A stretch of DNA of 64,000 bases from Enterobacter hormaechei subsp. hoffmannii (lineage in GTDB: Bacteria > Pseudomonadota > Gammaproteobacteria > Enterobacterales > Enterobacteriaceae): positions 2,728,001-2,792,000 of the forward strand of contig NZ_CP017186.1 of NCBI RefSeq assembly GCF_001729745.1. The letters are read 5' to 3'. Shown one piece after another: positions 39,538 through 41,193 of this stretch. Each line of letters starts with the position of its first letter. Position 1 is the stretch's first letter. The position numbers and the translations under genes were made by a program. The notes under the pieces are model-generated. The model made no database searches and was not told the DNA's origin. It was given only the letters and a program-made list of their open reading frames with translations.

Positions 39538-39981
39538 ATGGCGCAGAACAGCGCGTTATCAACGCTGAAAGATCTGGCTGAAAAAGAAGTTGATGATGCC
39601 GCATTGCAACTTGGCGCAATGCGACGCGGGTGCCAGCAGGCTGAAGAACAGTTGAAGATGTTAATCGACTATCAGCATGAATATCGCACCAACCTTAACA
39701 CCGACATGACGCAGGGCATTGGTAGCCAGCGCTGGATTAACTATCAGCAGTTTATCCAGACGCTGGAAAAGGCGATTGAGCAGCATCGCCAGCAGCTTAA
39801 CCAGTGGACGCAAAAAGTCGATACCGCGCTGAATTTCTGGCGCGAGAAAAAACAGCGGTTGCAGGCCTGGCAAACCTTACAGGACCGGCAGATTGCAGCC
39901 TCGACCCTGGCGGAAAACCGTCTGGATCAGAAAAAAATGGATGAGTTTGCCCAGCGCGCATCAATGAGGAAACCAGAATGA
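39538..39981 (+). CDS. fliJ: Flagellar export protein FliJ
   Basis: A 147-residue antiparallel coiled-coil protein, the stalk in the FliI ring that links it to FlhA. It is almost wholly helical with many Gln, Lys and Glu. It overlaps the fliK start by 4 bp (ATGA). Confidence 0.95.
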   Translation: MAQNSALSTLKDLAEKEVDDAALQLGAMRRGCQQAEEQLKMLIDYQHEYRTNLNTDMTQGIGSQRWINYQQFIQTLEKAIEQHRQQLNQWTQKVDTALNFWREKKQRLQAWQTLQDRQIAASTLAENRLDQKKMDEFAQRASMRKPE

Positions 39982-41193
39982 TCACACTGCAACAACTGCT
40001 GATGACCGACAGCGACCCGTCCGGCGGCACGCTGACCGGAAAAGGCGCTGAGGGCGCGCAAGATTTTCTCTCTCTGCTGGCGGGCGCGCTGACCGAGACC
40101 ACCGGCAAAGGCAAAGATGCTCCGCTGACGCTGGCCGATCTGAAAGCGGCGGGAAGCAAGCTGTCGACAGCGGCACAGGAAAAAAAACGGTGATACCACG
40201 CTCCAGGCCAAAATCGCCGAGCTGCTCTCCCGCCAGGAGACCCTGACTGATGAAGATACCGCCGTCTCCCTGCAAAGCCTCGTCTCCGGTCTGAAACCCG
40301 CAGCGAATACGGATGCGCTGAAGGCGCTGACCCGGACGGACGCGAAAGCAAACAGCGAGACCACGACTGAAGAAGAGGAGCTGGCCGGGTTAAGCGCGCT
40401 GATGGCGATGTTGCCGCACCAGCAGACTACCACCCCAATGGCGACGCAGCCAGCAAGCACCGGGGAGGTCGCCCCTCGTGCCGCCCTCCCCTCTGCGCTA
40501 GCCCAGACGGACAACGGCCAGCATCAGCCGCTTAGCCATGCGTTAACGGGTCAGGAAAAAACGTCGGTTCAGGACAGCGACACGTCGCTGCCCGCCACGG
40601 CAGCCGTTACGCCAGCTGTTGCCGCCGTCGCGGAGAAGCAGGACGTAGTGAGCACGGCGTCGTCTGCCGCCAGCCCAACCGCGACGCTGGCCCCGATCGT
40701 TAGTCACCTGGCAACCCCCCAGTCTGCCGCTACCGTTGCGACCGCGCCGGTGTTAAGCCAGCCGCTGGGCACGCACGAATGGCAGCAGAATCTAAGCCAG
40801 CACATCACCCTGTTCACCAGACAGGGCCAACAGACCGCAGAGCTACGCCTGCACCCGGAAGATCTGGGTCAGGTGCAAATTTCGCTTAAGCTGGATGACA
40901 ACCAGGCGCAGTTGCAGATGGTTTCGCCCCACAGCCACGTTCGTGCGGCGCTGGAAGCGGCCCTGCCGATCCTGCGCACGCAGCTTGCGGAAAACGGCAT
41001 TCAGCTTTCCCAAAGCAGCGTCAGCAGCGAAGGCTTTGCCGGGCAGCAGCAATCTTCATCCGGGCAACAACAGCACGCTTCGCGTTCAGGCCAGCATGGC
41101 GGGTTTAGCGAGGAGAGCGAAGAGTTATTGCCAACCCCTGCCGCCCTGCAATCCGCCGCGCGCGGCAGCCGTGCCGTAGACATCTTTGCCTAA
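39978..41193 (+). pseudogene. fliK: Hook-length control protein FliK, split by a frameshift in an A8 tract
   Basis: The first 71 codons (MITLQQLLMTDSDPSG, AAQDFL-like ADLK block) run in one frame and end CAG GAA AAA AAA CGG TGA at 40191-40193. From 40189 the frame one base later is open without a stop to 41193 and contains the Pro/Thr/Ala-rich hinge and the FliK_C domain (HEWQQNLSQHITLFTRQGQQ, AELRLHPEDLGQVQISL). The break is an A8 run at 40180-40187. With seven A the gene would read 404 residues straight through, close to Salmonella FliK (405). FliK measures the hook and tells FlhB to switch to filament export. As written, no full-length product is made unless slippage removes one A. Confidence 0.88.

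What the first reader, a model, noticed from the sequence alone, without database searches (positions are those of the whole stretch)
39978..41193. fliK is broken, or made switchable, by an A8 tract
The 71-codon head and the open tail of fliK lie in frames offset by one base, and the only break is GG-A8-CGG at 40180-40187. With seven A the gene reads through to a 404-residue FliK of normal length. All neighbours (fliJ, fliL-R) are intact. Three explanations remain: a homopolymer sequencing error; an on/off phase switch by replication slippage, giving polyhooks without filaments when off; or transcriptional slippage on the A8 run making a mix of products, as described for type III secretion genes of Shigella. 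Ribosomal rescue would need +1 (or -2), not the common -1 shift.
Basis: partly seen in the sequence, partly recalled or inferred. Interest (0 to 1): 0.72.

Follow-up and report, generated by a model that had tools for sequence, protein, structure and literature searches.

The report
Flagellar ruler gene with shifted frame
In this Enterobacter genome the gene for the flagellar hook-length ruler is split at a run of eight A's that is shorter in its closest relatives; this looks like a single recent slip, or a sequencing miscall, and not an evolved on/off switch.

Summary
fliK starts at 39978, meets an A8 run at 40180-40187 and stops at 40193. The rest of FliK lies open one frame away and ends at 41193. 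The two pieces match positions 1-69 and 65-410 of NCBI's 410-position FliK model, so only the frame is lost.

At the same codons the run is A7 in three other genomes (the closest ones), A6 in one, A4 or less in nearly all the rest. It is a by-product of ordinary codons in one small clade and is not kept.

The break is seen in this genome only and is recent or not real: both pieces still show purifying selection. In 987 kb aligned to the closest relative, length-matched genes hold 108 A/T runs of 7 or more; fliK is the only gene seen broken at an A/T run of that length. General run-length error is unlikely; a single miscall is possible. Rescue by transcriptional slippage is unlikely: E. coli RNA polymerase gave no deletion-type rescue on the poly(A) runs tested.

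Odds: real slip mutation 0.47, miscall 0.40, phase switch 0.08, recoding 0.04.

The parts
39978..40193 (+). fliK head: 71 codons, then UGA
   Evidence: matches NF007514 positions 1-69
40180..40187 (+). A8 run where the frame breaks
   Evidence: shorter at the same codons in every one of the 105 rows from other genomes
40144..41193 (+). fliK tail frame, open from 40144 (overlaps the head out of frame), ending at the normal fliK stop; first ATG at 40402
   Evidence: matches NF007514 positions 65-410 and PF02120
39538..39981 (+). fliJ, intact, overlaps the fliK start
41300..41770 (+). fliL, intact, next gene downstream

Best explanation
A genuine, recent, one-off replication-slippage mutation in the sequenced strain or culture. 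A run that is A7 in the closest relatives is A8 here, so FliK synthesis stops after 71 codons. SHOWN: the frame break, intact copies in relatives, a run length seen in this genome only, and purifying selection on both pieces. INFERRED: that the extra length is in the cells and not only in the assembly; that it arose by slippage; and that without FliK the export gate does not switch, giving overlong hooks with few or no filaments and poor motility, as known for Salmonella fliK mutants. Like any such run it could slip back at a low rate, but nothing shows that this is used.
For: Run at most A7 in all 105 rows from other genomes. Of 107 loci from other genomes, 104 have an apparently intact fliK frame, 2 are broken elsewhere in the gene (L054, L059) and 1 is cut by a contig end. 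Head and tail keep low dN/dS, and the tail's private changes (16 synonymous, 7 amino-acid) have about the ratio of the sister genome's (9 and 4), so the break is young. In 987,354 bases aligned to G028, 821 gene pairs are length-matched and hold 108 A/T runs of 7 or more; fliK is the only gene seen broken at an A/T run of that length, so the assembly is not generally wrong at such runs. Two other one-base frame breaks seen in this genome lie outside long runs, which suggests that real small indels occur in it. Precedent for slip in an A8 coding run: C. jejuni pgp1 (PMC5133587).
Against: No reads and no second strain of the species could be examined. A frameshift seen in one genome only with intact homologues is the class that the GeneTack authors expected to be sequencing error (PMC3711429 section 29). 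A further one-base difference from G028 lies at the edge of a G7 run near the end of a gene of about 1,030 codons (G000 1,058,287), which could be a second run-related error. mutS and mutL are intact, so no mutator explains a slip. The lack of decay and of a change in the FlhB C-terminal part fits a very young mutation and an error equally well.
Confidence: 0.47

Rival explanations
1. Consensus error: the cells carry an intact fliK and the assembly miscounts one homopolymer. No biology is involved.
For: Seen in one genome only, with intact homologues and no decay. Singleton frameshifts of this class were expected to be errors (PMC3711429 section 29). Long-read-only assemblies keep mostly homopolymer-length errors (PMC8812927 abstract and passages). 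One other one-base difference sits at the edge of a G7 run.
Against: Only fliK was seen broken at an A/T run of 7 or more, against 108 such runs in length-matched genes over 987 kb, so the error rate at A/T runs cannot be high. The length test misses breaks in the first or last part of a gene. The sequencing method is unknown.
Confidence: 0.4
2. Evolved phase switch: replication slippage at the run turns FliK off (A8) and on (A7), and cells use the mixture.
For: Changing the run length changes the frame; three close relatives hold A7 with an intact gene. C. jejuni pgp1 shows that A8 runs can vary between isolates (PMC5133587).
Against: The run is A6, A4 or absent outside the nearest genomes. 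It is no longer than 16 other A/T runs in length-matched genes of the sample. fliJ and fliL hold A7 runs and are intact. mutS and mutL are intact. Paper searches gave no listing on a fliK switch in enterobacteria (listings only).
Confidence: 0.08
3. Recoding: RNA polymerase slippage on the A8 run, or a ribosomal +1 or -2 shift, makes some full-length FliK from the split gene.
For: An A run next to an early stop with the rest open in another frame is the layout of Shigella type III genes and C. rodentium tssM1 (PMC5009743 section 23; PMC4256274).
Against: E. coli RNA polymerase gave no detectable activity on fewer than eight A and none by deletion on the poly(A) runs examined; rescue here needs net loss of one or gain of two (PMC6260861 section 19). 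tssM1 has A11. The site is not conserved. RNA after the run folds no better than shuffles (z 0.81).
Confidence: 0.04

Closest known systems
Single-genome frameshift (singleton) at a homopolymer: error or young indel (classes of the GeneTack study, PMC3711429)
   Same: One genome only, intact homologues in relatives, break at an A run of at least 7
   Different: Nothing found that sets it apart
C. jejuni / C. coli pgp1 A8 tract (PMC5133587, passages)
   Same: A8 run in a coding gene whose length change truncates the product
   Different: In pgp1 A8 is the on length and by far the commonest (830 of 859 genomes in the paper's table), with A7 and A9 variants; here A8 is the off length, seen once, with no population data
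Transcriptionally slipping secretion genes (Shigella spa13, spa33, mxiA, mxiE; C. rodentium tssM1)
   Same: An export-system gene interrupted at or after an A run with the rest open in another frame
   Different: Run short by the published limits, the rescuing direction is the disfavoured one for E. coli RNA polymerase, and the arrangement is not conserved

Membership tests
FliK (NF007514 / PF02120) | Sequence match over the family model | tested here: met
   Head 1-69 and tail 65-410 of 410; tail 455.1 bits against cut-off 396; tail matches PF02120
FliK (NF007514 / PF02120) | One uninterrupted reading frame | tested here: not met
   Two frames offset by one base
Homopolymer phase-variable (contingency) gene | Run inside the coding sequence whose length sets the frame | tested here: met
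   A8 at 40180-40187 with a split frame; A7 with an intact frame in three relatives
Homopolymer phase-variable (contingency) gene | Run longer than the ordinary background of the genome | tested here: not met
   16 A/T runs of 8 or more and 108 of 7 or more in length-matched genes of the 987-kb sample
Homopolymer phase-variable (contingency) gene | Run kept among relatives | tested here: not met
   Of 105 rows from other genomes: A7 in 4 (3 genomes), A6 in 2 (1 genome), 5 or less in 99; distant rows align poorly at this place
Homopolymer phase-variable (contingency) gene | Length variation within a strain or species, with a reversible phenotype | not testable with these tools
Transcriptional slippage gene | Run long enough for the host polymerase, in the favoured direction | tested here: not met
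   A8 and a needed net loss of one or gain of two, set against published limits (PMC6260861; PMC1088944); slippage itself was not measured
Transcriptional slippage gene | Mixed transcripts and two products | not testable with these tools
   No RNA or protein data
Programmed ribosomal frameshift | Conserved shift site with a stimulatory structure | tested here: not met
   Site not conserved; fold of 40170-40290 no better than shuffles, z 0.81

The most novel reading that the evidence does not exclude
The A7 run that a small Enterobacter clade gained in fliK makes hook-length control a low-frequency on/off trait: cells that slip to A8 would make overlong hooks and few filaments, and could slip back.
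Probability: 0.07. Interest if true: 0.5.

Novelty: new member of a known kind. Interest (0 to 1): 0.13.

Why it matters
Mostly as a caution: a split fliK in this genome should not be read as biology until the run length is confirmed. If the mutation is real, the strain should swim poorly and make long hooks. A real A7/A8 mixture across the clade would be a simple, testable case of hook-length control exposed to slippage.

Tried and rejected
Mutator: mutS and mutL each give one full-length open match; rejected. Generally error-rich assembly: rejected for A/T runs by gene-by-gene comparison with G028. That comparison was mechanical: ORFs by rule, pairs at 85% identity or more, length ratio 0.85 or more counted as matched. 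It misses breaks in the first or last part of a gene. It listed 29 length-mismatched pairs (10 + 5 + 14), fliK among them; those without a 1-2 base indel nearby were set aside as start-site, stop, mobile or rearranged cases and not studied one by one. A list of all frame-changing indels inside G028 ORFs showed one at the edge of a G7 run near the end of a gene of about 1,030 codons at G000 1,058,287 (open frame 1014 against 1036 codons); another beside an A8 run at G000 1,340,354 lies in a stretch before the likely real start and leaves the gene open. Old pseudogene: rejected by selection on both pieces. FlhB suppressor: 332 residues compared with G028, three differences, all upstream of the NPTH site; about 50 N-terminal residues were not compared because the script began at a later Met (that NPTH normally lies near residue 269 is recalled). 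Recoding structure: none. Promoter and terminator scan of 39500-41400: none found. The strain was not named: the plasmid contig gave partial matches only, the genome lengths gave no paper, and two lookups on a type strain recalled from memory were dropped.

Full report
WHAT IS THERE. The window lies at 2,728,001-2,792,000 of contig 1 (4,546,962 bases) of a genome of 4,678,566 bases in 2 contigs, completeness 100. The named relatives nearest by fliK are Enterobacter quasihormaechei and E. cloacae strain M-7, so the genus is Enterobacter by inference; the strain is not named. fliK begins at 39978, overlapping the end of fliJ. The frame meets eight A at 40180-40187 and ends at UGA 40191-40193 after 71 codons. 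The tail frame, one base off, is open from 40144 to 41193. Given apart to NCBIfam, the head matches positions 1-69 and the tail 65-410 of the 410-position FliK model. Only the frame is broken; no part is missing. It is the only Flg_hook match in the genome.

RELATIVES. A match to fliK DNA was found in 59 of 61 genomes of the genus set, the window's own included; the two without are 79% and 86% complete (30 matches became loci, L002 being the window's own). A named collection gave 78 loci. The two sets overlap: L005 and L033 are the same contig by length and place, as are L006 and L032. Of the 109 loci, 105 have a FliK open frame of 370 codons or more; the other four are the window's own copy twice (L001, L002), L054 (broken) and L096 (cut by a contig end). 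One of the 105, L059, is frame-shifted near its N-terminus. At the codons homologous to the run, 106 rows were aligned (L001, L054 and L096 left out). The window's genome has A8. Of the 105 other rows, 4 have A7 (L003, L004, L005/L033: three genomes), 2 have A6 (L006/L032: one genome) and 99 have 5 or less, among them the next relative L007/L034 with 4; eight of the 99 have no A or only gaps there, and distant rows align poorly. The run comes from Glu-Lys-Ser codons that became Glu-Lys-Asn codons in one clade; the A8 state is seen once.

AGE OF THE BREAK. Against the closest relative (G028, locus L003) dN/dS is 0.05 for the head (7 synonymous, 1 amino-acid change) and 0.144 for the tail; the same columns between L003 and L004 give 0.06 and 0.129. 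Private tail changes are 16 synonymous and 7 amino-acid in the window lineage, 9 and 4 in the L003 lineage. There is no sign of decay, so the break is recent or not real.

QUALITY OF THE ASSEMBLY. Three stretches of the window's genome (2.50-2.88, 1.0-1.4, 1.8-2.2 Mb) were compared with the matching parts of G028: 348,527, 328,144 and 310,683 aligned bases with 295, 274 and 252 length-matched gene pairs. Those genes hold 108 A/T runs of 7 or more (40, 33, 35), 16 of them of 8 or more. fliK is the only gene seen broken at an A/T run of that length. Other one-base frame differences in this genome were seen: a split DUF481 gene at 1,816,090 and a shortened gene near 2,123,290, neither at a long run, and one at the edge of a G7 run near the 3' end of a gene of about 1,030 codons at 1,058,287. 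The screen is mechanical and misses breaks near gene ends. So the assembly is not riddled with run-length errors at A/T runs, but one or two errors cannot be excluded. The GeneTack study expected BLASTp-validated single-genome frameshifts to be sequencing errors (PMC3711429 section 29). Long-read-only assemblies keep mostly homopolymer-length errors (PMC8812927 abstract and passages). How this genome was sequenced is unknown.

MECHANISMS. If real, the simplest cause is one slip on A7; mutS and mutL are intact. In Salmonella a fliK deletion gave hooks of 362.8 nm on average against 53.8 nm in the wild type, and FliK consists of an N-terminal ruler with the export signal (1-207), a linker, and a C-terminal switch domain (268-405) (PMC6972891, passages). 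A 71-residue head would hold part of the ruler and no switch domain (inference). FlhB shows no difference from G028 at or after its NPTH site, so no suppressor is seen there.

Transcriptional rescue is unlikely. E. coli RNA polymerase gave no detectable activity on fewer than eight A, and none by deletion on the poly(A) runs examined (PMC6260861 abstract and section 19), while rescue here needs a net loss of one or gain of two. C. rodentium tssM1, which does slip, has A11 (PMC4256274 abstract and one section). The Shigella cases are summarised in PMC5009743 section 23. Ribosomal rescue has no conserved site and no special RNA fold.

A phase switch is possible in principle: the A8 run of C. jejuni and C. 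coli pgp1 varies between isolates (PMC5133587 passages). Here the run is not kept, is no longer than others in this genome, and fliJ and fliL hold an A7 each without a break. Paper searches on fliK with phase variation, frameshift or Enterobacter gave no listing on such a switch in enterobacteria; only the listings were read for this.

VERDICT. Observation confirmed. Interpretation: a one-base event private to this genome, real (0.47) or a miscall (0.40); a switch (0.08) or recoding (0.04) is improbable. The finding is ordinary, and accurate reads of the isolate would settle it.

Noticed in passing
L054 (Leclercia adecarboxylata NCTC13032) and L059 (Phytobacter massiliensis JC163): fliK is frame-shifted in these two assemblies too, near the N-terminus and not at a long A run; L054 appears to have more than one break.
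   Followed up: partly
window 41194-41299: The spacer between fliK and fliL is nearly identical in the 9 genomes printed and carries an imperfect inverted repeat seen by eye (GTGATTATCCCCGT ... ACACGGGATAATCAC); the repeat finder at default settings reported none.
   Followed up: no
L193:15811-16847 (G000 C1 about 1,816,090): A DUF481 gene is split by a one-base difference from G028 outside any long run.
   Followed up: partly
L209:2660-3290 (G000 C1 about 2,123,290): A gene without a Pfam match lacks 45 N-terminal residues relative to G028, with a one-base difference there.
   Followed up: partly
L152:18287 (G000 C1 1,058,287): A one-base difference from G028 at the edge of a G7 run changes the end of a gene of about 1,030 codons.
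   Followed up: partly
L111:19960 (G000 C1 about 2,539,960): A C6 run here is C7 in G028, where the overlapping open frame is much shorter; the surroundings look rearranged between the two genomes.
   Followed up: no
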